This document shows, piece after piece, positions 25,176-57,989 of a DNA stretch of 64,000 nt. Each line of letters begins with the position of its first letter. Position 1 is the first letter of the stretch. The notes beneath the pieces were generated by a model that saw only the letters and a program-made list of their open reading frames with translations, ran no database searches and was not told the DNA's origin. The stretch comes from Nymphaea colorata (Eukaryota; Streptophyta; Magnoliopsida; Nymphaeales; Nymphaeaceae), in assembly GCF_008831285.2 (NCBI RefSeq), contig NC_045146.1:4157972-4221971 (forward strand), given 5' to 3'. Made by a program: the position numbers and the translations under genes.

Positions 25176-28100
25176 GAAACATATCGTAAATTTATTTTTT
25201 TAAAGTTAAAAAATCAAAATAAATAATTGAAAATAGACAAAAATTCAATGCTCCATAAAAAACATGTTACACTTACATATAGTCTTACAGGAATATACAT
25301 TCGCCAATTTAACATAACATAATCATTATGTCATAGGTAATCATATATTAAGAAATAATAGTCATATAGTTACATATTACAAGATGAAAATGTTTAATAC
25401 AAATAACAAATGAAAATAATCAAGTATCATCTATCCATCATTCATCACCTAATTAAAATACCTAACAAATGATTTTCAATCAATTGTTTTCCTCACCCTT
25501 GTGCATCATTTTCATGTGTGATCGTACAGAGATATATATCCACAAAACAATGGAAATCTATGGCAATTCACAGAACAATAGATTAAAAACAATAGAAATC
25601 TATAGTGAGAGATTTTTATACATTTTGTGAAAGAAATCAGAAACCCCTTTTTATTCATCTGCAAATTGATCTCTCACATGCAAATCTTCCTTCAAATTGA
25701 TGTTTTTTCTAATAAATTGATAAGAGATCCACTTTACTCAACTCCTAAGAGTGTTTCGAAATGAGGAGAGGGGGCTTCTTTAAAATACAGTTAAAGAAAG
25801 GGGTCTCGAGTACCCTGTACTGAGGGTGTATTGTATCGATTTTTCCCATAGTTACAATACATCCGCAATGTAAGATATATATGACACTGCAGAAAACATT
25901 TCAATGATAAGACTTTCCATCAGTAAAATGAGTTTCCACGTAACACAATTTGGATTTTCTGCAGGAGCAGCCATATTACATGATTTTTCTAAAACATGCA
26001 GTAATTGGAGGCATAGTTAGAAAAAACATGTTTTTTCTTTAAAACATGTGTTAGAAATACGAAAAATAAGTCAGCCAAAAAAACAACAAAAAAATCCTTT
26101 TATATTTAAAAAAATGCCAAAATGAAAAAACGTAAAAAAAGAGCATCTTTTTCACATTTTCTCACTTTCACATTTTAGGTTTTTTTTCACATTTTTATTG
26201 TTAAACTGCTTGTTTCCATTTTATAATTTTTATTTGTTGCTTATCTACTTATTTTTTGATGTTGTGTTATAGTTCTCATTTATTTTATTTTTTCCTAATT
26301 TTTAAGAAATTTTTAATTCTTTTTTAAAAATATAGTTCTTTCCCCTTTTTTTCGAGGTCGTCATAGTTACCTGAGAGAAACCTTGCCATTTAAAATGTGA
26401 AAACAATATTTGTGACTATGATTGGAGGGCATATTGGCTGGCTATGTTAGGCAACCAAGCTGAACATTCTTGCATTGTCTTCGCAAAAGTTTCTGCATTA
26501 TGCTGTTGTTAATGCAAGACTTGACAATTTTGTGAAAAGAATTCTTGAACTTAAATGTGAGAAGCTGTAAAGATTTATTTTCATTCAGATAAGGATTAAG
26601 CAATGTGAGAAATAGGTTTATGAGGAAAACATCTATATATATGAATGGCTATGTTAGGTAACCAAGCTGAATATTCTCGCGCGATAACATGCACAATATA
26701 TATATCTATATATATGAATGTATGTATATATACGCACCACTTCACAAACTACGGGTGCACAATATACAATACTAACAAGAAAGAAAAAGGATACATTTTC
26801 ATGAGCAGCTCTTAGCGTTCTATAAAGGCAGTTATGACGGACATCAATAACCTGGGAAAAAAATTAAAGCAATTTTTCAGTAATTCAACTAGTAAGATAG
26901 AACAAGAGCTCTGAAAGTTAACAGATTGAGGCCAGAAAGATTAGCCATGCTCTGAAAGAAACTGGAGATGTCCAGAGAAGTTCATACAAGAAGCAAATTA
27001 TCAGCTATGCTTCCAGCAACATTAAACTTTATTTCTGAAAGCATCACACGGAGATATCACACAATATAAATTGAGAAAGCACATTTTTTAAATTAGTATA
27101 TTTTCGATTTACAAAGCACATCCTGGAATTTGTCTCTGCCTTGTCAAATGAAGGATAAGACAAATGGAACAACAACAAACATGATTATTAAGAACCACAA
27201 TGTTTCTTATCCTTTCATTTATCAGGATTCATGTGTTAAGGTGACGACCAAGCTTGGCTTTAGTGGCAGACGTGCCATGTGAACTATACCCAATGTCATG
27301 CTCCATTTTTCAATGAAAGCAATTTCAGTGAAAGCAATTTCAGTGAATTGATGCTTCTGTCCTATTCAAATAGCCCAAATAGATGCCAGCAAATGAGTTT
27401 AAGGTAATGCCACATAGCATAATAATGTTTTCAATATATTATCACATTGATATTTGTATTATAATATGTATAATAATGTATTCATATATAAAAAGTGAAA
27501 GTTCCAGTGCATATTTAGTGTACTTATGTTTCCAGTATACGCATATGCATCTTTTGTGTGTAATATAGTGGAAAATATGATAGAATAAATACACAATACA
27601 GTATAATGTCATTTACTTTACACAGTTGTGAAATATATACACAGGGTTCGGTTCAGGACTGAATCCGTGTGCATTAGGTTCAAACCAAGCAGGTTTAGAC
27701 TAGTGAAGACTGGGTTACAGGGGTCAACTGGGTTCAATAGGCTTAGATTTGGAGGAAAGCTAGAGTATCAGGTTCAGACTAGGTCTAAGGGGCGTATCCT
27801 AGGTCTGGATCAGGTCTTGGTCGAGCCAGGCTGGTATGGTTTTGGGGCCCACTAAATTTGATAAAAACCCTAAGACTTCTGGCAGATTTAGGTTTAGATA
27901 TATCAGGATGGAATTCTGCCCCCATGGAAACTGCACACAGAGTGGCCATTTTTGCCCATAAAAATTTGTCAAATTTTGGGACAACTTAGGCTACCAGATC
28001 AATATGTGAAGCCAATAGCCCTTCAGCTTGAGCCTGATTCAGACTGCATCTGAAAACTCAACCTAGTTTGGTCTAGAAATTAATTTTTCGAAAAGAAAGT

Positions 28101-28885
28101 TCATTAAAGAAAATGAAAAAAATATCTTGACTGAGCATTCAGCCATCAAGGTCATAGTTATGCATGTTAAATGAGAAAAGAAAATTAAGATATTAAGTAT
28201 ACAATAACTTTAGGCAGCCAAGCAACTGAATTCATTAGCATCATTTACGATATCTAGATTTCTAAGGAAATCAACTAAAAATTTCTAAATTATAGCAGAA
28301 AAAGTGTCTTAGGAATACCTTTACATCTCCACTGTCATCAGCAGCAGCAAGGAAAGATGATTTGGGACTGAAAGATATCTATTGAACACAGAGAAAAAGA
28401 AAACAAGGAAAAAGAAAAACAAGTTACAGACAATATGTAGCTTATGATTTATGAAACATCATAAAAAATGCTGATAATAAAAGTTTGTACAACTGAATAA
28501 GTTGACAACATGTAGCTTATGAAACACCACCGGAAGTGCTGAATATAAACGTGTACAACAGAATAATCAGCTAATGAACACAAAATAACCAGTAATCCCT
28601 GGTCAGGGTAGCTTAAAGCAAAATTGAGTAAAGGAGATTAGTCATATCTAATAATGTCTTAATACCGGAAAATAATTAACACAATTTATTAATAAAAAAC
28701 TGAAAAGAATTTACTGTTCTCTATGTTGCATGGACACATATACAGGTGTCGCCGTGTCGGTGTCGGACACTGGTATGGGTGTTGAATACGGCAAACTTCA
28801 AAAAATTAAGCACTTGGACATGACCATATATATATATGTTGAATACAGCAAACTTCAAAAAATTAAACACTTGGACATGACCATG

Positions 28886-28922
<37 letters not shown>

Positions 28923-29682
28923 GAAAATTGAATGGTGATTTTGGCTTTTCAAAATCACCCAGCCATCTAAGTGGGGCCGTCCGATCCAATATGATAGACA
29001 GTTAAGGGAAAAACAAGGAGAAAAAGTGATGAACATTTGCATCATCTAACAAATTGTAGAAAAAAATTCATCTAAAATCTGTTATATAATCAATTATTGT
29101 TTAAACTTTATTAGTCTGTGTTTGTATATATGTTTTATATCAAGGTTAGTTTCACGAATATGAAATGTAGTTAAATAAAATAGTCTTTTTAAAAAGTTAA
29201 AAGGACAGACCCATGTCATCCTTCAAATGCTTTTTCTCTATCTTTTGAAAGAAAAAGAAATCTTCCTTTTGGAAAGGAAAAAGAAAAGGATGATGTCCTT
29301 GTAAGTGGGGGGGGGGGGGGGGGGGGGGAAGACAAAGAGAGAGAGAGAGAGAGAGATGTCAGTCAGAGTCAAAGAGGGAGGTAAGTGAAAAGGAAAAGGA
29401 ATAAAGAGAGGAAGAAAGGAAAGAGAAGGGAAAAAATAAGAGGGAAAAGGGGCAACACGTGTCTACTTTTTGGACACTTCATGTTCAGAAAATGGCATGT
29501 CCCACACGTGTCAAGGCATGTTGGTGTTGGATACGGCCGGATATCGACACTTCATTTTTTTGAATTGTCCATGCAACATAGGTTGTTCTTTATTAAGAAC
29601 CAAAATGGCAATAACAATACAATGAAGAGAAAAAGAAACAATAAAACAGAAAAGCAAAATTACAAAAACCAACTAGCTCCAT

Positions 29683-29761
<79 letters not shown>

Positions 29762-29947
29762 CAATTCAATCTTGTCGGATGCCGGATGTTACTTGTTGGT
29801 AAAAAACAGTCATTACATTGGTATTAGAGATAGTTTATGGTGGGGCAATGGTTTATGCTGGCTTTAGTGACGTTTTGTAGTCCTGCAACAAATTTTCCTT
29901 TCAGCAACAAATTTTTAAATTTTGATCATCCAAGATCCAACAACATG

Positions 29948-30022
<75 letters not shown>

Positions 30023-30283
30023 TATATACATATATATATATATATATATAACTATAAAAGAGTGGGTGAATGGTGACTCTGGCTACCCAAGTTACTCAGC
30101 TCATTCACGAAGGCTGTCCAATCCATCGTGATAGATGGTTGAGAAAAAAACAAGGAGAAAAAGATGTACATCTAATACTAATACACACATTTTTCTCTTT
30201 GTTTTCTGTCCACTATCCATCATGATGAATCAGATAGCTTTCATCAGTGACTTGGGTAACTCTTGATAACCAAGTTCACCATT

Positions 30284-30321
<38 letters not shown>

Positions 30322-33300
30322 GATAAGAACATGAATTTTAATCTCAAACTTGGCACGTTATGCCTATGGACCATTGATTTTTCTAGATATTAAGATTGTC
30401 TAGATACTAAGACACCCATATTTACATTAGACTTACAAGACTGTATGTAAATCATATCTACAAGTCAAAAAAATATAGTGTATAAACACTACAGAGTATA
30501 AACTATAGTGTATAAAACTATATGTAAATCATATAAGTCAAAAAAATATAGTATAGTGTGTAGTGTATAATAATATAATATATAACACTATAACGATTAA
30601 CAGTATAACATTACAGAGTATAAACTATAGTGTATAAACACTATAACACTGTAGTGTATAATAATATAATATATAACACTATAATTTATAACACTATAAC
30701 ACCGTTGTGTATTACATAGTGTATAACTCTATAACACAATAATACTTTAGTATATAACGCTATAACATTATAGCGTACGACGCTATAATGCAATAGTGTA
30801 TGACGATGTTGTATATAACACTGTAGTGTATAACACAATTACACTTTAGTGTATGACACTAAAACACTATAGTGTAAGGTATGGTACTATAACAGTAAAG
30901 TGTATAACAGTATAGTATATAACACTATAACACTGTAGTGTATAACGCTATAGTGTATAACGCTATAGTGTATAACACTATAACACTGTAGTGTATAACG
31001 CTATAGTGTATAATACTATGACACTATAGAGTATAACTCTATAATACTATAGTGTATAAAACTCTAAGACTATAGTGTATAAAACTATTGTCTATAATAT
31101 TATAACATTATAGTGTATTATAGTATAGTGTAAAAGTCCATAAACACTGTAACACTACAGTGTAAAAAAAAATAACCCTATAACGCTATAGTGTATCAAT
31201 TATATTGTATAACACTACAACACTTTAGTGTATAATACTATAGTGTAGAACACCATAACAGTATTGCGTTAAATCACTATAGTGTATAACACTATAACAC
31301 TATAGTGTGTGACACAAAAAAACTGTAAAATATAGTGTATAACACTCTAGTTTATGACAACATAGTATTACACTATAGTGTACGACAATATAACACTATA
31401 ACACCATAGTGTGTACCACAATAACACTATAACACTGTAGTGTATAACAATATAACGCTATAGTGTATCACATTATGGTGTATAACGATTATACACTATA
31501 CTTTACAGTGTTATATTGTTGTACACTACAGAATAATACATTATAGTGTTATGGTGTCATAAACTAGAGTGTTATACACTATACAGTTTTTTTGTGTCAC
31601 ACACTACAATGTTACAACGTTATACACTATAGTTATATAATGCAATAGTGTTATGGTGTTCTACACTATAATATTATACACTAAAGTGTTATAGTGTTAT
31701 ACAATATAATTGATAAACTATAGCGTTATAGTATTATATAATACAACATTATATGGTTATTGTGTTTTACACTATAGTGTTACAGTGTTATGGAGTTTTA
31801 CACTATACTGTAATACACTATAGTGTTATAATGTTATAGACAATAGTTTTATACACTAGTCTTAGAATTTTATACACTATAGTGTTATAGTAGTGTTATA
31901 GAGGTATACTCTATAGCGTTATTGTGTTATAGTGTTATATACACTATAGCATTATACACTACAGTGTTATATACTATACTGTTATACACTTTACTGTTAT
32001 AGTACCATACACTATAGTGTTTTAGTGTATTTAGTGTCATACACTAAAATGTAATTGTGTTATACACTATAGTGTTAAAGTGTTATACAATATAGTGTTA
32101 TATACAACATCGTCATATACTATTGCGTTATAGCGTCGTACACTATAATGTTATAGCATTATATACTAAAGTGTTATTGTGTTATAGAGTTATACACTAT
32201 AGTGTAATACACAACGGTGTTATAGCGTTATACACTAAAGTGTCATAGTGTTATACATATAGTGTTATATATTATATTATTATACACTACAGTGTAATAG
32301 TGTTTATACACTATAGTTTATACTCTGTAGTGTTATACTGTTAATCGTTATAGTATACTAAAAACTGTACGTAAATTATATCTATAAGTCAAAATAATAT
32401 AGCATGAATAAACAAGTAAACTTTACGTATGTGGGCATAGTTGGTACACAGAGAACTACATATACATATATAGAAACATTGAAATCATCCCGCTACATTT
32501 GTGGGTGGATGGTTATTTTTTTTTTATTTGATGTCGCTAAAACCAGTGTTTAAACATGAGCCGAGTCAACTCATTGACTCGGCTCGGCTCACCCCCTTCC
32601 CAGGTAAACCCAATAAGGGGACTTGGTTTAAACAAAAACTCAGTAGGCCTTAGAATCGGTTGATTCGGTCGAGTCAAGGAAGACTTGCCCGAATTCTGTT
32701 GAGTTTTTGTATGCAATGTAATATGGAAAAACTAAAATGTGCAGGGGGTTTTGAGTAATAAAAGCATGTTATAAAAAAGATGAAAACCCAAACCCTCGTT
32801 TGACTTTTCTTCTTCTTGACGGCAAAAGATGAGGGAGAAAGACATTAAACCCTTATCTACTGTCATGAGGGAGAAAGACATTAATCCCTTATCTACTATT
32901 TCCGACCATATTTTCAGTGAGAATGGAGATTCCGACGACTGACCCACGTCAACATAAAAATTGGCTTCTCAAGTATGCTATTCTTGTGTTTTTCGTTTTA
33001 TTTTCCAACCTTATGTTTCCCAATGATTTGGATTGATTAACTTAACCCTTTTAGTTTTCTAGTGACTTCCATTTTTTCCGATGTGTTCTCTCTCACTTTC
33101 CAGTATCTCTCTGTCCTCCCCATTCTTCTCTTCTTCTGTTGGTTCATAATCTTATGGAAGTATTTCCAAACCTGTCATGCTCTCTCTTTGTTTTTCTCTC
33201 TGCTCTCTCTCTTGTAACCTCGCTCTGCTCCTGCCCCTTTCTCTCTATCTCTTTCTCTATCTCTCTTTCCCTCCTTCTTGGCCGCTTGGACTCTATCTTT

Positions 33301-33839
33301 GTTCATAGTTCTCATTCTTTTCAAGTTTCAACTGGATGCATATTTTGTTTCTCTTTTATTTCATCTAATTCTCATCAATTTTTAGTTGAGGCGGTTCTAC
33401 CATCTACCTGCTGTCTATCCATTTTTTAATTTTTATCGTTAGTTTCAACTGAATGCATATTTTGTTTCTATAACTTCATTTGATGTTAATTTGACTTATT
33501 TTTTAATCATATAAGAAAAAATTAAGTCATTTTACAATTTTTTTACATTTAAAAACAAGTTATACATTGTTATTTCTTAAACAAAAAAGTCAACATAACC
33601 TGGTCCGAGTCACCGAATTGACCCACCGAGTCATGAGTCCAGACCAGACAAGTGGAGTCCCTAGTCACTGGGTTTTAAAACCTTAGCTAAAGCCTAAAAC
33701 CCATCGCAAAAAGGGGTATTCCCTTAAGAATCATGGCCATACAACTGACCATCACAAATGCACCTTTTGTGAGGGTTTTTGGCGACATGAAATAAAAAAA
33801 TAACCATCTCGCCATAAAGGTAGCTAGCAAATTTCAATT

Positions 33840-33882
<43 letters not shown>

Positions 33883-36800
33883 ATTGAGAATACGAAAACA
33901 AAAAAAAAGTAAAAACTGCATTTGTTTTTAAATATGGAGAAAAAGAATTTATCATGTTTTGAGACATCACATTTTTTGGAGAAGCCTGCAACATTTCATT
34001 AGATTTCATTAGATTCTTTTACCTGATCTTGCCAATCTTAGTTCAAAACAATAAAAAAAAAGGAAGAGCCCAAAACTATTACCCAATCTTAAAATAAATA
34101 AATTAAAACTTTACCTGAATATTCTGAGCGGAGAGTTCAGAAGATTCTTTCAATTAGAACTTTAGGATTTTTTTCATTTCTAAAAAACTGCTGAGATTTT
34201 TGTGAAAATTTTCTCTAGAAGAACTTTAAGAAAAATAACGGAGAAAAATTGAAACCCTTGCTGTTAAAAGCCCTGATAACAATATTTATGATATATATAT
34301 ATCGAGAGAGAGAAAGAGAGAGTACAGAGCATATCATTTTACAGAAGCAAATGCAATGAAACTGTTACAGGAAAAGAAGACAGAAAAAATCCACTTATGT
34401 TCCATAATGCAGAAAAACTGAAGCCTCACTTTCTAAATATATTTCAAAGGGAAGGAAGAAAGTAAAAAAATATGGCCAATGCCTAACATAGTCAACCATG
34501 CCTATTGACCAGTCTATTATCTGGATCTAGCAATTTTAACGCATCAGGACTAGTTGACAGACTGCCAACTTGGTTGTAGTCCATGAATAAAGCTTTTGAA
34601 TCAAGTTATCAACTTTATCCAAGTAAACAAGGCAACATGGAGTCAAGCCAACTGGTGTACAACATGGGGAGAGAGAGTAGTTCCGCTAATTTTAATAACA
34701 CCTTTAGTGCAAATAGATGGTTACAAATTACAATTGTTAATATGTTATCAGCTTAATAAGTAACCATATTCCACACACCAATTTAGGTGCTTGAAGATAA
34801 ACATGCAGCAGAAAGTTTAAGCTCTAAGGATCATAAAGGGAGAGAAAATTCTAAAGAATATTACAAAAAAACGTGAGGAGATTTAAATGCACAAAATTTA
34901 TTTGATCAACAACAGCAATATGGCAGACTGACTGCCTGGGTGCCTTGACGTTATCAGGTTAGTAAGTAACCATATTCTACACCAATTTAGCTGCTTGAAG
35001 ATCAACATGCAGCAGAAAGTTTAAGCTCTAAGCATCATATGCAAAAAAATGTGAGGAGATTTAAATGCACAAAAGTTATTTTATCAACAACAGCAATATG
35101 GCAGACTAAACAAACCTGATTTATCTCTTCTTTGTTGTAGTTATAGCTTTCCAAAATTTTATCCGAGGATGCCTGGAAAAAAATAAACAGATGAAAACTG
35201 TGTAAACAAAGGACAATTGCACAAATTAGTCATCCCACAAACTGTGAAGGAAGCAACAAACAATAAGCTCATCACAAGTCAAACCAAATAAGGATATAAT
35301 TCATAAATAAGGTCAATAGTTAAATGCTGATCAGTCCATCAGATGGAGGAGTCAAAAATGAACAAACTAGTTTTTGGGCTAAAGTCAGTCTAGACCTAAA
35401 AACCCAATCCCTCAGTTTTAGTGCCACTCTGTAACTTTTTGTTCTTTGCTTCTTCAATCATCTCCTGAAGGAAAAGACAGAAAGACCAAGCCCCCCACAC
35501 TCCCTCATACAATTTGGAGTGTGCAGACCTTTTAGGTGTCTGCAACCAGCAAGTAGTAGCAGTTGTGGCCAGACGCAGGACCAGAAATTATACTTTGTAT
35601 AGGCTGGCATTTGATAGCAAGGAGACAGGTACGGGTACGGGCTGTTTCCAAAATACTTGGGTATCGCGGTACGATTGTGTGTGTGTAACATAAAATAAGA
35701 ATTTAAACAAAGAAAATAACACATTCATGATTCAAAATTTATAGATTCTCAAGAAGAAACTATTGAACAAAATATGAAAATGCAGCTCTGTATGTGTTTC
35801 TTGAGGGGAAATGGTGTAAAGAAAAAATTGAAATCCTAAATTTTGGATAAGAAAGGACTCGGTCAACTTTGACCAAGTCTCATATCCGGTACTCTTTGAC
35901 CAGTACCCAAGAAGTACCCAGGACAGTACTAGTACTAGTACCGGTGTCGTACCCAACCGGTACGGGTGCACTGCCTATAGAGCAGTACCCATGTGACAAA
36001 GGAGCCTGCCTAATGATCCACATGCACATGCACATGCATGCCTGCGCAGTGTGTGTATGTGTGTGTGCACACACAACCCAAAGTTACAATTATGATCGAT
36101 AATATGTCAAAGATGTTGCATTGATATGGAAAAAACAAAAGACACTTGTATTAAAAAACTCGTGATATTTTCAAAACATTGTCGAAAGACTTTTGTTGCG
36201 ATAATATTGATATTTTTTCCTTTTTTATAATAAAGTCCTTTTTTGGTGTATTTTAGTGTATCTTTCCATTATTTTTGTTTATTTTGAATTTTAAAACTAT
36301 TTTAAATCAATGTCAATGTAACAAAATTAGTAAAACACTTTTAATTTCATCTTTTACCTATTTTTATATTTTTTAAATGTTTTGAATTCCCCAAAAAAAT
36401 TGCCAATAAAAACCAGAAAACAATATTTGTCACCAAGACTTATATTTATATAAACAGTTTGCTTTTAGATCCTGTCACTTGGAATACACAATCAATGACA
36501 TACGGGGTCGTTTGGCAAATGAAACACTTTGTGAGTGTTCCATAAATCTGCCTCAAAGATTGGGGTAGATTCATGGACACATAGTTCTAGTGTTCCATAA
36601 ATCTGCCTCAAAGATTGGGGTAGATTCATGGACACATAGTTCTAGTGTTCCATGAATCCACCCCAACTTTTTAGGATAGGTTCATGAAACACTCACAGAG
36701 TGTTCCAACTACCATATAATTTTCCAAGATGTCTAAAATGGATCACCTTTATACTAAAACCTTCCAATTAACACAAAGGCTATCTGCCAGTCCAAAAACA

Positions 36801-38953: not shown

Positions 38954-39011
<58 letters not shown>

Positions 39012-42000
39012 TCAGCTAGCTACCTTTGAGGCCGAATGGTCTTTTTTTTTTTTAATTTTGTCGCTAAGAACTGTCACAAGAGGTGTGTTCCATCATCAAA
39101 ACCATGGCCAAGATAATCATATCAGTAGGATGATTGTCACATTAAATTTAATAGAACTACCTTCCAACTAGAACACATTAAACAATATTTAGTGAAACAA
39201 GCCAGATAACAAATAAATTATTTACTATATTATGTATATAAACAGTTTGGAGATGGCCAGAGATGACAAGTAATAAATATCAGAAGAAATATTTGGCACC
39301 AAATGAATATAAGATAAATCCATATACAGCTCGTGCTCACATCACGGGTCTGAACCCACTCATGTTTCAGTACCAACAAGTAATCATACTATTTGGTTAC
39401 TGCTTTCAATCTAAACAATAAATATGCCCAGATGATTATATATTGCCACACATCTACTGAAAATCTAAACAATATCTCACACACAAAGTTGTAGACTCTC
39501 CATTTCTTAAGATAAGCCTCATTTCTGTCTTACAAGTACTAGCTCAACACATGCAGATTGTGAAAAGTGACTATAACAGTCACAAAGAATACATACAATA
39601 CCAAAAAGGCACTAAGGCCAAGTGAAGAAGAGTAATACTCATTCAATAAACAATATAAAGGCTGTAAAACACAGCTTCTCCTTTACAAAGACTGTTACAA
39701 GGATATTTATAAGAGAGAATAAGAAGAGATGAGCTAAACTAGCCGTTGGGCTAGTTCCAACAGCTCTTAATAGAGCTGTTGGAACTGCCAACGGCTAGTT
39801 TGGCAGAAATAATAAAAAAATAAAAAAATAAAAAATAAAAAATAAAGAGAAAAGAAAGAAATAAACTAAATCCTAAACTAATTCCTAACTAATCCTAAAC
39901 TAGCTCTTAACTAAGATAATACCTAATTAAGAGATAACAACAATAAGAAATCATATTTCTTAACACCCCCCTTAAACTTACGGTGCTATCACCGAAAGTT
40001 TATCTAAAAGAAAGTTGAATCTGGGAGAACATAGAGGCTTTGTGAAGAAATCAGCCAGCTGGAACTCGGAGGAGACATATGGAAGTTTGATAGTCTTCTT
40101 CAAAAATTCTTCACGAACATAGTGACAGTCCATTTCTATATGCTTTGTTCGTTCATGGAATGTTTGATTCTTGGCAATGTAGATAGAACTCTTGTTGTCG
40201 CAGCATAAATCAGTGGGTTCTTCTATCTTTATTCCCATATCAAGGAGCATTTGGCGAAGCCAGACAATTTCCATAGTTGTAGAAGCCATGGCTCGATATT
40301 CAGCTTCAGTAGAGGATAGTGAGACTTTCTGTTGCTTTTTGCATTTCCATGAGATGAGTGATTCTCCTAGAAAAACACAAAATCCAGTAGTTGAGTGTCT
40401 ATCATTAGGATCTCCTCCCCAATCAGCATCAGTATAAGCAATCAAGTTCAAGGAGGAAGAGGAAGACATAAATACTCCCTTGTTTATTGTTCCCTTAATA
40501 TATCTGATGATACGAAGAACAGCTCCCATATGAACGGTTGATGGAGCATGTTGAAATTGACTCACAGTATGAACTGCATGAGCAATGTCAGGCCGAGTGA
40601 TGCTAAGGTACATCAAGGATCCCACAAGTTGTCGGTAAGGAGTGGGATTGGCAAGTGGAACTCCATCATCAATCTTCATCTTGCTTCCTACTGCTTCAGG
40701 AGTTTCTGTGACCTTATCATCTGTTATGCCTGATTTAGCAATGATCTCTGCAGCAAACTTAGTTTGTGACAAAAAATATCCTCTAGTAGAGTATGCAACC
40801 TCAATACCCAAGAAGTACGTTAGAAAACCTAAATCTTTCATTTCAAAAGTTTCTTGTAGTAATTTCTTACATTCTTTAATACCTTCCTTATCACTACCTG
40901 TAATGATCATATCATCAACATACAGTAGAAGAATTATGATACCTGCAGTAGTATACTTAACAAACAAGGCAGTGTCAGTTAAGCAAGAATGAAACCCATA
41001 ATCAGAAATAACAGAATTAAAACGGTCAAACCAAGCTTTAAGAGCTTGTTTGAGGCCATAAAGAGCCTTCTTAAGTCTAAGAACTTTCCTTTGAGGAACA
41101 GACAACCCTGGTGGTACTTCCATATAAACCTCTTCCATAAGATCCCCATTTAAAAAGGCATTTTTAACATCCATTTGATAGATATTCCAGTTTTTAACAG
41201 ATGCTAAAGCAATAAGGGTCCTAACAGTAGTCATTCTAGCTACAGGGGCAAATGTTTCCTCATAGTCAATACCATATTCTTGAGTGTAACCTTTGGCAAC
41301 AAGCCTTGCTTTATACCTTTCTAGGGATCCATCACTTTTAGTTTTCACCTTGTATACCCACTTGCATCCAATAGTCTTTTTCCTTATAGGTAAATCTTGT
41401 ATTTCCCAAGTTTGGGCTTTTCTCAAGGCATCCAATTCTTCTAACATGGCATTCTTCCACTCAATATATTTGGATGCTTCATTAAAAGTAGAAGGTTCAA
41501 AATGAGAGTGAATGGCATTAATTCTAGCTCTATGAGATGGAGTAAAAGTTTCATAAGACACAAACCTATTGGGTTGTCTTACATTTCTAGTGGATCTCCT
41601 AAGGTTTTCTCCACTTTGAGTTGGTTGGAGATCAATGGTCTCATGATGTTCTTCTTCACCAACTTCTTGTTGCCGGTTTCTTCTATGATAAGTGATTATA
41701 TCCTTGGCCATTCTACTATCATTACCACCAGTGTTGCTATCATCACCATCATGCATTTCATCATCACATTGAGAAAGGAACTTAAATAAAAAGGAATAAT
41801 CATTATTGTGTTGTGACTCCCCACAATTTTTAAAACCACTTTCATCTTCACAAAACCTTACATTCCTTGAGACAATGATCTTGTCTTTAATTGAGTCATA
41901 ACATTTGTAGCCTTTTTGGGTTTCAGAATAACCAATAAAAGCACATTCAATAACTTTTGAACTTAGCTTATCAGCCTTGTCATTAAGAACAAAACATTTG

Positions 42001-45000
42001 CATCCAAAAATACGAAGTCTATTGAAATCGGGTTCATACTTGAATAATTTTTCAAACGGAGTGGTATTATGTAAAACTTTTGAAGGCATTCTGTTTATAA
42101 GATAAACAGAGGCAAGTGCGGTTTCAGCCCAAAAGTTTTTAGGCACATTTTTGGAAATAAGAAGGGTTCTTGTTGTTTCAATTATGTGCCTATGTTTTCT
42201 TTCTGAAAGTCCATTTTGTTGAGGTGTTCTTGGACAAGATTTTTGGTGGACTATCCCATAGTTTTTCAAATATCTTTCGAACTCATTTGAAATGTATTCA
42301 CCTCCGGAATCAGTCCTTAAAATTTTTAATTTAGCATTGAATTGTGTTTGTACTAACATGTGAAAATTTTTGAATATCTCAAAAACTTCGGATTTATGTT
42401 TTAGGAAATATATCCAACAATACCTAGTGAAGTCATCAACAAAGATCACATAATATGATAGCCCTCCTTTTGACATGATAGGAGAGGGTCCCCATACATC
42501 GGAATGAACAAGCTCAAAAGGCAAAGAAGAGAAGAAGTTCCTTTCTCCAAAAGATAAAGATTTCATTTTTCCATGTATACAATCATTACATTTAAAATTT
42601 TCAATACAAATATTCTTGGTAGGGTTCATCATAGACAATTTTCTAACATTTGGATGACCTAATCTTTGGTGCCAAACATTGATGTCCACATTTTCAACAT
42701 AGTGACAAAACTTTTCTTTGGGGATGCATAAATTGTCCATGTAGTAAAGGTCCCCTTTTCTAAAACCTTCCCCAATCAATCTCCCGGTTTGGTGATCCTG
42801 CACCAAACATTTATTTGATGAGAAAACAACATCAAATCCAAGATCTGAGATTTGTGACACAGAAAGTAAGTTAAGATTAAGTTTAGGAACATAACTAACT
42901 TTTGGAACAAAAAATTTTTGTTTTCCAAATTCTTTTTCAAAATTCCCAATCCCTTTAACACTTAAAGAAGTTCCATCGGCGGTAACAACATTTGATTCTT
43001 TTCTTGTTCTTTCAAATTTGGTCAAAGATGATATATTTGGTGTCATATGAAAAGATGCACCAGAATCTAAAAGCCAAGAAAACATACCAGGAGTGTTGGA
43101 GATGGATGCCGTTGTTGCTAGTGCTCCGGAATTTGACTCCTTGATCATGGGTTGAAGGGCTGTCATGATTTGATTCAACGTTGTGGATATAGATGATAGA
43201 TCACATCCTTCATTTGTGACATTTGCGGCCTTTCTTTGATCAAATTGTCTAATGTTGTAATGTCCACCTTGAGGAAATGAAATTCCCCGGTTGTGTTGCC
43301 CTCCTTGTGGATATGAAGTTCCTCCTTTGAGAAAATTTCCTCCAAGATTCCGCGATTGTCCTTCATTGTTGTTCAACTTTGGGCAACTAGGTCTTATGTG
43401 ACCCGGTTCATGACAAAAGTGGCAAATAACTTTATATTCTCCTCTAATTTGATTCTTAAAGTGAGGAGGTCTAAAAGACTTGATGTTGTTTCCAGGTCTA
43501 GAGGCGGCTAAGGCTCTTTCTTCTTCTTGTTTTGAGACAAGAACACTATCTTTATCCATTTCTTTGGATAATTTCATTCTAGTTTCCTCTCCACTTAGCT
43601 TTGTAAGAAGTTCATGAATGAGTGGAGGAGAGGATGAAGAAAGAAGGGCTGACCTTATTTGTTCAAATTCGGGCCGTAGCCCTTGAAGGAATTGAAAAAA
43701 CCGAAATTCATCTATTTCATTTCTTCTAATCTCATGGCATTTGCAGTCCAACCCTAGTTCGGGACTTAGTTGATCTAACTCATTCCATACACTAGAGATT
43801 TCCATGAAAAATTCTCTAACATTTTTCTCTCCTTGCTTGATACTTTGGGCCTTTTGAATCAAAAGATACTTTCGGGCCATATCTTTTTGGGTGAACATTC
43901 CCTTAAGATATTCCCAAACTTCACTAGCCTTTTCATAATACATAAGATTTTGGGCAATTCTAGGTTCAATACTTCCATAAATCCATTCTTTAATCCTAGA
44001 ATTTTTAGCTTCCCAATCGTCTAATTTTTTGTAATATTCATTCATAGCATTTTGTCTTTCCACTCCATCTAGTTGTTTTTCAATCCCATTTTCTATTTTG
44101 GTCAACTTGAGAGTGGGAGGGATAGACGTACCTCTTATGAAGCCCCATAAATATTTTCCTTTGATATGCATTTCCAAACATTTTGCCCATAGTGTATAAT
44201 TGGTTCCGTCAAGCTTGTATGGAGCATAATAGCTTCCTCCTTCAATTGAAACTTTGGAGTCTTCCATGAGAGCAATACTTGAAACAATAATCTCCAAGGA
44301 AGTCAAGAAAAAACTCTTCTAGAAATTTCACCAAACAGTTGGTGAGCAACCGCAGCAAAAAGGCCTTCAAGAAATTATATCCTCCAGCAAAGAATCTCTT
44401 CAATCAAACCAGCAACATAAAATCTCAGCAGCAGCCTTTAACAAGCTTTGAGAATCAGCCCAATGGCTCTGATACCATGTGAAAAGTGACTATAACAGTC
44501 ACAAAGAATACATACAATACCAAAAAGGCACTAAGGCCAAGTGAAGAAGAGTAATACTCATTCAATAAACAATATAAAGGCTGTAAAACACAGCTTCTCC
44601 TTTACAAAGACTGTTACAAGGATATTTATAAGAGAGAATAAGAAGAGATGAGCTAAACTAGCCGTTGGGCTAGTTCCAACAGCTCTTAATAGAGCTGTTG
44701 GAACTGCCAACGGCTAGTTTGGCAGAAATAATAAAAAAATAAAAAAATAAAAAATAAAAAATAAAGAGAAAAGAAAGAAATAAACTAAATCCTAAACTAA
44801 TTCCTAACTAATCCTAAACTAGCTCTTAACTAAGATAATACCTAATTAAGAGATAACAACAATAAGAAATCATATTTCTTAACACAGATTGCTGAAATCA
44901 TAAGGACAGTTTAAACGCTTTAAAGTAAGAAAGAGAGAATATCTCAACAAAATCTCATATACAAAGTTGTATACTTTCTATTCCTTAAGATAAGCCTAAT

Positions 45001-55720: not shown

Positions 55721-57989
55721 CTGGACTAGTAGGGTGATTCAATGGATAGTCTCTTCTGTTGATAGGTTTGTACATTTGCAACAATAATATGAAAGTTTAG
55801 TGTTGTCCACCACACAACCTGCAATAGAAGTTTGCTACATAAACTTGCTTATTTCGATAACTCTGGTTCTAAAGAGGGAGGGATGGGCGATGACGACTGG
55901 AACCCAAGTCATCTTATGTTCTAGAAGTGATCATCTTAATGTGGGTTTAAAAATGTCTGTTGTAAATATATATTTTTTTTGGCAACAAAGGTTTGAAGCC
56001 TTCCCCTCTAAAAGTTTTCACCAAAAGGTAACATATATGCACACACATACACACACATAGATATATATAACTTGAAAGTTTGCAAGGTTTTCAATATGAT
56101 CTTTGAAAGAAGGCCCTAATATTTAAAAACTAAAAGTTTCACGAATACTCTATTTTCCCAACCTTAGGATAAAATCTACAGCCCCCCCTCCCTTTCTGCT
56201 TCCATCTCTCTTTCAATCATCAAAACTAAGATCCTCAGTATGTTCTTTTTCTATTTTTCATAGTGTCCATCCTGGAAGTTTTATTTTCAAAACCCCCCAT
56301 AGAGTTAAATATCAAGAATTATGCTCCTGACCTAATGTCAGATAGCTTTCCTTGATAGACTCACATCCTCCTAATTTTTTTTCTCTTCTTGAACAACAAC
56401 TTAGATGTATGTTATAGTAGAAATGCCACTAGATGAATGTCATGGTAGGAATGTTATGGTATGTTTACTCTTAATAAATGGTTTGAACATATAGATGCAT
56501 AAAACATGCATGCACACAAGATCACTTCACAAAACATGAAGGAAATGATGGATATCTATTGACTTCTAAGAAAGATAAAATTAAACCCCATCTAGATTAG
56601 AGTAGAAATAGGGTCGAATCTTAATCCTTCATTAAGATTCAATGTTAACACTTCCCCAATCAATACTATTTTCAAGATATCCTCCCATTTTTCATGCGAA
56701 CTCTTTGCTTCTTTTCCCTGTTAAAATATTGCAAATATTTGCAATATTTTTAAGTGTCTCCCCCTTCTGTCCTATGACGAGTAAGGTTATGGCTATAGTC
56801 CTCTAATTCAAAACTTATTTCTCAAAACAAACATTGAAATCTTGCTTTTATGAAGCATGACAAAATAAAGCTATGTTTTGCAAAATGAGCAGTTAGCAAA
56901 TATGCTTCGAATTACATTTTTTTCCAAAACAAAATAAGATGAAAACCATGCTACTCAAAATCATCATTGAAACATGAATTTTCCTTTACATTTGAGGTTT
57001 AATGAAAATATTATAAGAACTCGAATCATTTTAAAACATCTCTTTGAACCTCACCTTTTTCAAAATGATCTAAAATTTCTCCATTTTAAATCCTTCTCCC
57101 TATGGTTATTATCATTTTTGGTTCAATGAAATACCCATAAAAGCAAACATCCTTTCCAATCTTTTAAGCTAAATTTAAGCATACATGCATATATCTTGGA
57201 TAAAGATGGTGGGAATAGCCAGACCTCGCAGCTATGGTTGGTCCCTTTCTCTTGTTTTCAAAAATAAAACCCACTTTCCAAATACACTCCAAAATCTGAA
57301 ATTGATTTTAGGATGTGAACATATTCTAATTAAGGCACTTCCATAAACATCTTTTGTCAAAGCTTGGTCCAAACTCAATGCTTACCTAGGCTCTTGAGTT
57401 TGAGTTTTTTTTTTTTTTTTTTTTTTTTTTGTGGTGTGGGTTGGGCGGGGGGGGGGTGGGTGGAGATGTTGGGGGGTGAGGGGAGAAAAATGTTAGCAAG
57501 AGTAGCTTAGCAGGTCTCATGAGCTAAGTGTTCTTATGATCTTTTAAGATATAGAAAATCTATAGCTATTTGTAGAAATAGGCAATTACCTAATTATAAA
57601 GATAGAACAGTGAATCTCAGCATAGCTGTAATTGTATCGAATCCTAGAAAAAGAAGTGTGCTGCCTTCCTTATCCATGTAACTGCACAATGACATTATTG
57701 GGTGGAACCTTCCATTGATTACACTACTGAATTCAACTATGTCTATGGGTGAAGCAGTCCTGAAAGCATGCAGAATCTCTAGTCCAGAGTAGTGGTACTA
57801 GGTTGGAGTTGGTGCACTAATTGAATACACTCTGCTCTTCAATGGCGTCCCTAGTGCCACTCTTGCTTATCTTCTACGCAAGTTTTATATTCTATATGTG
57901 TTGGTGTATGTGGTCTTAATGTTACTCACTAGACATAGTGAAATGGTGACTATGCATTTGCAGCTTTTGGAAAATCATAGGGCAGTGAT
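55721..57989. other. Gene-free stretch with poly(T) and G-rich runs
   Basis: A run of 26 T lies at 57405-57430, followed by a G-rich patch (57431-57485). A poly(T) facing a decayed sequence could be the inverted tail of a retroposed copy, but no body was recognised. CA/TA words occur at 56038-56070. No gene found. Confidence 0.45.

What the first reader, a model, noticed from the sequence alone, without database searches (positions are those of the whole stretch)
30439..32402. Giant nested palindrome built from ACACTATAGTGT units in a transcribed intron
Self-complementarity exists at two scales: each short unit is palindromic, and the whole array reverses direction at about 31483 to form two arms of about 0.88 kb. 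In the WDR53 pre-mRNA this could fold into a very long double-stranded RNA, a possible DCL substrate and source of siRNA; in DNA it could extrude a cruciform and be fragile. I know of no named element with this structure. The units contain CACTA..TAGTG by chance or by origin from CACTA-type ends.
Basis: seen in the sequence. Interest (0 to 1): 0.78.

Follow-up and report, generated by a model that had tools for sequence, protein, structure and literature searches.

The report
Intronic palindrome of inverted satellite array
Inside an intron of a plant gene, a block of short AT-rich repeats has been copied back-to-back in reverse, giving a long DNA palindrome that could fold into a long RNA hairpin; it is real and unusual, but it looks like an accident of repetitive DNA with no shown function.

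Summary
Window 30587-32354 is a 1.77-kb palindrome; its arms (899 and 866 bp) meet at a 3-nt loop (31486-31488) and are collinear and 94% identical (736/785). They consist of a degenerate 15/23-bp AT-rich repeat whose unit is itself nearly palindromic. It lies in a 6.7-kb intron (28379-35115) of a WDR53-like minus-strand gene; one exon query found a single genomic place.

Related arrays match on 12 of contigs C1-C13. The other arrays of the same type that I read run essentially one way. The window's arms match each other (score 985) at least twice as well as they match those arrays (at most 471). Direction-switching arrays elsewhere (L018, L022, L024) stay within array-against-array controls. 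No credible transposon ends were found.

Best reading: a satellite-type array suffered one inverted duplication, probably by foldback priming, and has since drifted about 7%. Its minus-strand RNA is predicted to fold into a very long hairpin (-1091 against -496 kcal/mol shuffled), but mismatches show no selection for pairing (p=0.30). siRNA production and fragility are plausible and untested.

The parts
30587..31485 (+). Left arm of the palindrome (899 bp), one-way array of 15/23-bp units (TAACAC orientation); probably the original arm (inference)
31486..31488 (.). Apex loop (3 nt) between an 8-bp perfect inverted repeat 31478-31485 / 31489-31496
   Evidence: global alignment and hairpin list; 12 distinct places in the array have such small hairpins, so the apex hairpin alone is not special
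31489..32354 (-). Right arm (866 bp), inverted copy of the left arm, 94% identical over ungapped columns
   Evidence: 736 of 785; K2P 0.067 (34 transitions, 16 transversions of 780)
30440..30478 (+). Flanking direct repeat 1 (39 bp)
   Evidence: 35 of 39 identical to 32364-32402
30517..30551 (+). Second left copy of the direct repeat, with a 4-bp gap
32364..32402 (+). Flanking direct repeat 3 (39 bp), same orientation as the left copies
30479..30586 (+). Array-like units outside the left arm, including direct repeat 2; no such extension outside the right arm
   Evidence: Read from the sequence; TRF rows at 30469-30526 and 30566-30717
28379..35115 (-). Host intron (6737 bp) of the WDR53-like gene, GT..AG

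Best explanation
An AT-rich, near-palindromic tandem array, related to arrays spread over the genome, sits in a WDR53-like intron and suffered one inverted duplication there. SHOWN: collinear inverted arms at 94% identity; the array was already degenerate before it was copied (two halves of one arm are 82% alike where they align, the arms 94%); 7 of 17 gaps between the arms have unit-like sizes (7, 8, 8, 23, 23, 23, 47); the other arrays of this type that I read are essentially one-way; no credible transposon ends were found. INFERRED: foldback priming made the copy. A broken or stalled end inside the array annealed to itself through one of its many short inverted repeats, synthesis copied the array back, and the end was rejoined to the right flank. 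The left arm is probably the original, since only it continues outward as array. INFERRED CONSEQUENCE: the minus-strand pre-mRNA can fold into a hairpin with about 0.75 kb of pairs, probably removed with the intron; part of it may be diced. Most likely it has no selected function.
For: Arm-arm score 985 against 99 for the arm with its own reverse complement and at most 471 for either arm with other family-A arrays; random unrelated 870-bp family-A pairs have median 300 and 95% point 408, n=108. One-way relatives: TAACAC/GTGTTA words 4/90 (L009), 1/55 (L010), 9/0 (L011), 38/0 (L012), 0/9 (L026). Divergence is transition-rich (34 to 16) and gaps are partly unit-sized. Apex loop of 3 nt and 12 distinct small hairpins in the array. 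Inverted duplication by foldback annealing of short inverted repeats near breaks is described in PMC10622511 (passages).
Against: Only one such collinear palindrome was demonstrated, so the mechanism is inferred from one event. One pair among the 108 control pairs scores 873, and copies of C3 arrays reach 1023 at 0.91 (L009b with L010bc): whole array blocks are also copied in direct orientation here, by duplication or otherwise, so foldback is not the only copying process. The flanking direct repeats are not predicted by the simplest foldback model. Many small hairpins exist in the array, so the apex hairpin is not specific evidence.
Confidence: 0.6

Rival explanations
1. The block was inserted here as a unit, palindromic already or not (for example from another array or circular satellite DNA), and the direct repeats of 39 bp or more are a duplication of the target made at insertion.
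For: Direct repeats 30440-30478 and 32364-32402, 35 of 39 identical, weaker similarity over about 67 bp; their divergence (4 of 39) is compatible with that of the arms (50 of 780). Direct repeats also flank the array in L020 (103 bp, 89%) and, less closely, L024 (138 bp, 84%), that is 3 of 17 arrays tested including this one.
Against: 14 of 17 arrays have no such flanking direct repeats by that test (one, L021, has inverted ones). Left-hand units and a second left copy (30517-30551) suggest stepwise local growth. A donor block as similar as the arms are to each other was not found (best 471 at 0.81), but one search scored only the best candidates.
Confidence: 0.15
2. It is a foldback-type (Mutator-like) or CACTA-type transposon whose long inverted repeats are made of tandem units.
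For: The form resembles foldback elements such as Tm1 (PMC3169594, passages); another foldback sequence lies next to it between TA microsatellites, 30050-30286.
Against: No target duplication at the arm ends and no CACTA terminus. The scan lists 185 candidate TIR-plus-duplication pairs; the best (8-bp ACTATAGT at 30632/32309) lie inside the array and are the array's own palindromic word; the only CACTA-starting pair (30677/32204) is also internal (no shuffled control run). The outer flanks could not be searched genome-wide.
Confidence: 0.1
3. The hairpin is functional: the intron is a source of siRNAs (endogenous inverted-repeat type) or regulates splicing or expression of the WDR53-like gene. 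This concerns function and can hold with any origin.
For: Predicted fold -1091 against -496 kcal/mol (sd 4, 12 shuffles), 747 arm-arm pairs. Long plant inverted-repeat transcripts such as IR71 are diced by DCL2, DCL3 and DCL4 (PMC4687873, passages).
Against: Mismatches show no bias towards G-U (19 against 15, p=0.30). No Rfam match in 28000-36000 at gathering thresholds. No expression or small-RNA data were available.
Confidence: 0.12
4. Assembly or sequencing artefact (a read folded back on itself).
For: Such artefacts make inverted copies; no reads could be examined.
Against: The arms differ at 50 of 780 sites, 34 of them transitions, and by many gaps; an artefact would leave nearly identical arms.
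Confidence: 0.03

Closest known systems
Human palindromic AT-rich repeats (PATRRs), including an NF1 intronic one (PMC4940405, passages)
   Same: Long AT-rich palindrome without a real spacer, one example in an intron; predicted to extrude or form hairpins
   Different: PATRRs are described as over 90% AT and several hundred bp; this is 73-74% AT, 1.77 kb, and built from a tandem repeat that has relatives elsewhere in the genome
Foldback / Mutator-like elements with tandem units in the inverted repeats (Tm1, PMC3169594, passages; MuTAnT, PMC4486113, first of four parts)
   Same: Inverted repeats of unequal length made of about 14-bp tandem units; TA-microsatellite surroundings
   Different: No terminal motif or 9-bp target duplication found here; related arrays elsewhere are one-way
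Endogenous inverted-repeat siRNA loci such as IR71 (PMC4687873, passages)
   Same: A single transcript would give a very long, nearly perfect duplex
   Different: Here no small RNAs or precursor are shown, and the repeat is inside an intron of a coding gene
Foldback inverted duplications after double-strand breaks (PMC10622511, passages)
   Same: Collinear inverted copy with a very short central loop, in sequence rich in short inverted repeats
   Different: Those are chromosome-scale events in yeast; this one is under 1 kb per arm and interstitial

Membership tests
Palindromic AT-rich repeat (PATRR) | Near-perfect palindrome without spacer | tested here: met
   94% identity, 3-nt loop (gaps between arms of up to 47 bp)
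Palindromic AT-rich repeat (PATRR) | AT content above 90% (PMC4940405) | tested here: not met
   GC 0.27 and 0.26, so 73-74% AT
Palindromic AT-rich repeat (PATRR) | Breakage or translocation at the centre | not testable with these tools
   No read or population data
Foldback / Mutator-like transposon | Long inverted repeats containing short tandem units | tested here: met
Foldback / Mutator-like transposon | Target duplication of about 9 bp at the ends of the inverted repeats | tested here: not met
   none at 30587/32354; candidate pairs are internal array words
Foldback / Mutator-like transposon | Further copies with the same ends | tested here: inconclusive
   30420-30486 found only here, but that search did not report the third copy at 32364-32402 either, so short diverged copies would be missed; flank searches unanswered
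CACTA transposon | CACTA...TAGTG termini with 3-bp target duplication | tested here: not met
   one weak internal pair only; the canonical-like motif appears only at 56265
Endogenous inverted-repeat siRNA locus | Very long stem-loop precursor | tested here: met
   prediction only
Endogenous inverted-repeat siRNA locus | 21-24-nt siRNAs dependent on DCL2, DCL3 or DCL4 | not testable with these tools
   No small-RNA data
Dispersed satellite / minisatellite family | Same degenerate unit in tandem at several loci | tested here: met
   15/23-bp arrays on C3, C9 and C12; 8/10/18-bp relatives on more contigs

The most novel reading that the evidence does not exclude
The palindrome acts in trans: it is an inverted, possibly transcribed member of an otherwise one-way satellite type, makes long hairpin RNA of that type, and so feeds siRNA-directed methylation to the related arrays: a natural hairpin transgene against a satellite.
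Probability: 0.05. Interest if true: 0.75.

Novelty: new variant of a known kind. Interest (0 to 1): 0.33.

Why it matters
It is a natural case in which the step from a one-way tandem array to a long palindrome can be read, with one-way relatives in the same genome as controls. It would also let one test whether a satellite type with one inverted, intronic member is treated differently by RNA silencing. As it stands it is most likely a neutral product of repeat instability in a long intron.

Tried and rejected
CACTA, Mutator/foldback and MITE ends: scanned for TIR plus target duplication and for CACTA termini; 185 chance-like pairs, none credible (no shuffled control). Helitron and LTR membership of the palindrome were considered but not scanned for.

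'The palindrome recurs in the genome': L018, L022 and L024 first looked like further palindromes (identity 0.84, 0.80, 0.83). A control with unrelated one-way arrays of the same type removed this. Arm-arm scores are 469 (L018) and 252 (L022) and 176 (L024). Controls (median / 95% / maximum): 400 / 486 / 497 of 134 pairs at 760 bp, 236 / 301 / 323 of 137 at 420 bp, 130 / 169 / 188 of 138 at 230 bp. L024 thus lies above the 95% point and below the maximum. L021 scores 140, under the 340-bp median of 194. The alignments of L029 and L033 found no usable pivot. L019, L027, L028, L029, L033 and L035 also show inverted self-similarity and were given no such control, so 'only palindrome' is claimed only against the arrays tested. 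The best inverted stretch of L028, and the outer parts of that of L027, are by eye not this array.

Selection for RNA pairing: negative (the 19 and 15 were counted by me from the mismatch table). Rfam: nothing at gathering thresholds in 28000-36000. Viral contigs: no exact match to a 22-base array word.

Papers: the 12-mer is in five papers (listing only: four on trypanosome variant surface glycoproteins, one on zebrafish), none on such an array by title; eleven array words and one flank word of 18-20 bases are in none. 'No print record' means these three searches of an open-access library only. One search (term 'sirtron' among five) found nothing.

Full report
THE OBJECT. Window 30587-32354 is a true palindrome. 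Aligning the left half to the reverse complement of the right half gives 730 identical of 780 ungapped columns from 30587/32354 inward. Forcing the alignment to the apex gives 736 of 785, with arms of 899 and 866 bp and a three-base loop at 31486-31488. The left arm against its own reverse complement scores 99, the arms against each other 985. TAACAC is found only left of the turn and its reverse complement only right of it.

THE UNIT. The exact 12-mer occurs nine times in the element and nowhere else in the window. The repeat is degenerate, with autocorrelation peaks at 8, 15, 23 and 38, so the array mixes 8- and 7-base modules. Twelve distinct places in the element form a perfect stem of 8 bp or more with a loop of 3-6.

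HISTORY READ FROM DIVERGENCE. The two halves of the left arm align at 0.82, the two arms collinearly at 0.94, so the array had already degenerated when it was copied. Since then the arms gained 34 transitions and 16 transversions over 780 sites (K2P 0.067) and 17 gaps, 7 of them of unit-like size. With recalled plant rates of about 1.5 to 7 x 10^-9 per site per year that is very roughly 5-22 million years; gene conversion between the arms would make it look younger.

SETTING. tblastn of a recalled WDR53 sequence places exons on the minus strand at 47836-47753, 45484-45383, about 45150-45085, 35187-35116, 28378-28316, 26854-26792, 25014-24973, 23539-23459, 20698-20393, 20319-20176 and 19682-19596. 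Of four exon pieces given to Pfam, one matches WD40 below its curated cut-off (E 6e-5). The palindrome lies in the intron 28379-35115 with GT..AG ends. A 102-aa exon query finds one place in the genome. Whether the gene is expressed was not tested.

FLANKS. Outside the arms lie direct repeats of 39 bp at 30440-30478 and 32364-32402 (35 of 39 identical), with another left copy at 30517-30551. A search with 30420-30486 finds only that place in the 408-Mb assembly; it did not report the copy at 32364-32402, so it would miss short diverged copies elsewhere. Of 17 arrays tested for repeats between their flanks, three have direct ones (this one, L020, L024) and one inverted ones (L021). No credible inverted termini with target duplication and no CACTA ends were found. 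Genome searches with the outer flanks did not complete.

RELATIVES. The element gives 208 matches in the genome, part of them listed; a second query from a related array gives 75. Together they fall on C1-C4 and C6-C13; those on C7 are short (under 90 bp). I fetched 27 regions chosen, not every listed place. Two main types appear: a 15/23-bp type like the window's (C9 here, C3 13.41-13.62 Mb, C12 4.21-4.22 Mb) and an 8/10/18-bp type, of which C11 505-531 kb holds about 18 kb in pieces. Other arrays of the window's type are one-way or nearly so: TAACAC/GTGTTA words 4/90 (L009), 1/55 (L010), 9/0 (L011), 38/0 (L012), 0/9 (L026).

THE CONTROL THAT MATTERS. Two arrays of one type align at about 0.80 anyway, so inverted similarity alone does not show an inverted copy. 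Window arms with each other: 985 at 0.94. Window arms with the five family-A arrays of 850 bp or more: 341-471 at 0.78-0.81; with the short L011 and L026: 158-233 at 0.78-0.85. Random family-A pairs of 870 bp: median 300, 95% 408, maximum 873 of 108. Values that high occur because some C3 arrays are direct copies of each other (L009b with L010bc 1023 at 0.91). The direction-switching arrays score 469 (L018), 252 (L022) and 176 (L024), against control maxima of 497, 323 and 188; L024 is above its 95% point of 169. So, among arrays given this control, only the window's is a clear collinear inverted copy; six others with inverted self-similarity were not given it.

RNA. The minus strand of 30439-32402 folds to -1091 kcal/mol against -496 (sd 4) for 12 dinucleotide shuffles. 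747 of 829 pairs join the arms; 16 uninterrupted stems of at least 21 bp contain 550 bp. Each arm alone is less extreme: -274 against -234 (sd 7.5) and -246 against -199 (sd 7.2). Of 34 transition differences, 19 would give G-U and 15 A-C in the minus-strand RNA, p 0.30: no sign of selection for pairing. C-to-T differences are 8 of 44 at CG, 4 of 47 at CHG and 22 of 330 at CHH, compatible with methylation of any repeat.

MECHANISM. Inverting half an array would not leave collinear arms, so the event was an inverted duplication. Foldback annealing between short inverted repeats near a break is a described route (PMC10622511, passages) and this array offers many such repeats. That step is inferred. 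The flanking direct repeats could be older local duplications between which the array grew, or a target duplication from insertion as a block; the data do not decide.

KNOWN KINDS. PATRRs (PMC4940405, passages) are nearest in form, but the over-90%-AT criterion is not met (73-74% AT). Foldback elements with tandem-unit inverted repeats (PMC3169594, passages) and TA-targeting MuTAnT elements (PMC4486113, first of four parts) are near in form; their target duplications are missing here. IR71-type loci (PMC4687873, passages) show what such a transcript could do, and hairpin transgenes become methylated in their inverted repeat (PMC9263138, passages).

VERDICT. Interest is moderate to low unless small-RNA data show otherwise.

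Noticed in passing
window 39559-44884, minus strand: Copia-type retrotransposon in another WDR53-like intron: the two aligned LTRs (408 columns) are identical, flanked by CAGAT on both sides, with an open frame of 1446 codons; apparently a very recent insertion.
   Followed up: partly
window 30050-30286: Older foldback sequence (94 columns, K2P 0.28) lying exactly between two TA microsatellites (29951-30050, 30286-30317), with a relative at 28929-29036 beside another TA run; resembles TA-targeting MuTAnT-like elements.
   Followed up: partly
window 32457-32542, 33777-33859, 38984-39067: Three similar stretches (77%), two of them directly beside TA microsatellites; possibly another TA-targeting repeat.
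   Followed up: no
L011 4590-7625 and L012 1515-4334 (C12 4.21-4.22 Mb): Two 2.8-3.0-kb copies, 93% identical, TGTCACACCCC..TTACA, with array on both outer sides: looks like the LTRs of a Gypsy-type element (by eye) inserted into an array of the window's type. Similar sequence flanks arrays in L009, L010, L018 and L026, so this element family may prefer such arrays.
   Followed up: partly
L019, L027, L028: The same AACACTATA-like core occurs in other contexts: about 115-bp tandem repeats (L019, with similar sequence in L028) and inside a foldback sequence (L027). Why one short core recurs in several repeat types is unexplained.
   Followed up: no
L021 3763-3875 and 5490-5603: Inverted repeats of about 114 bp (91%) flank this array, unlike the other 16 arrays tested.
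   Followed up: no
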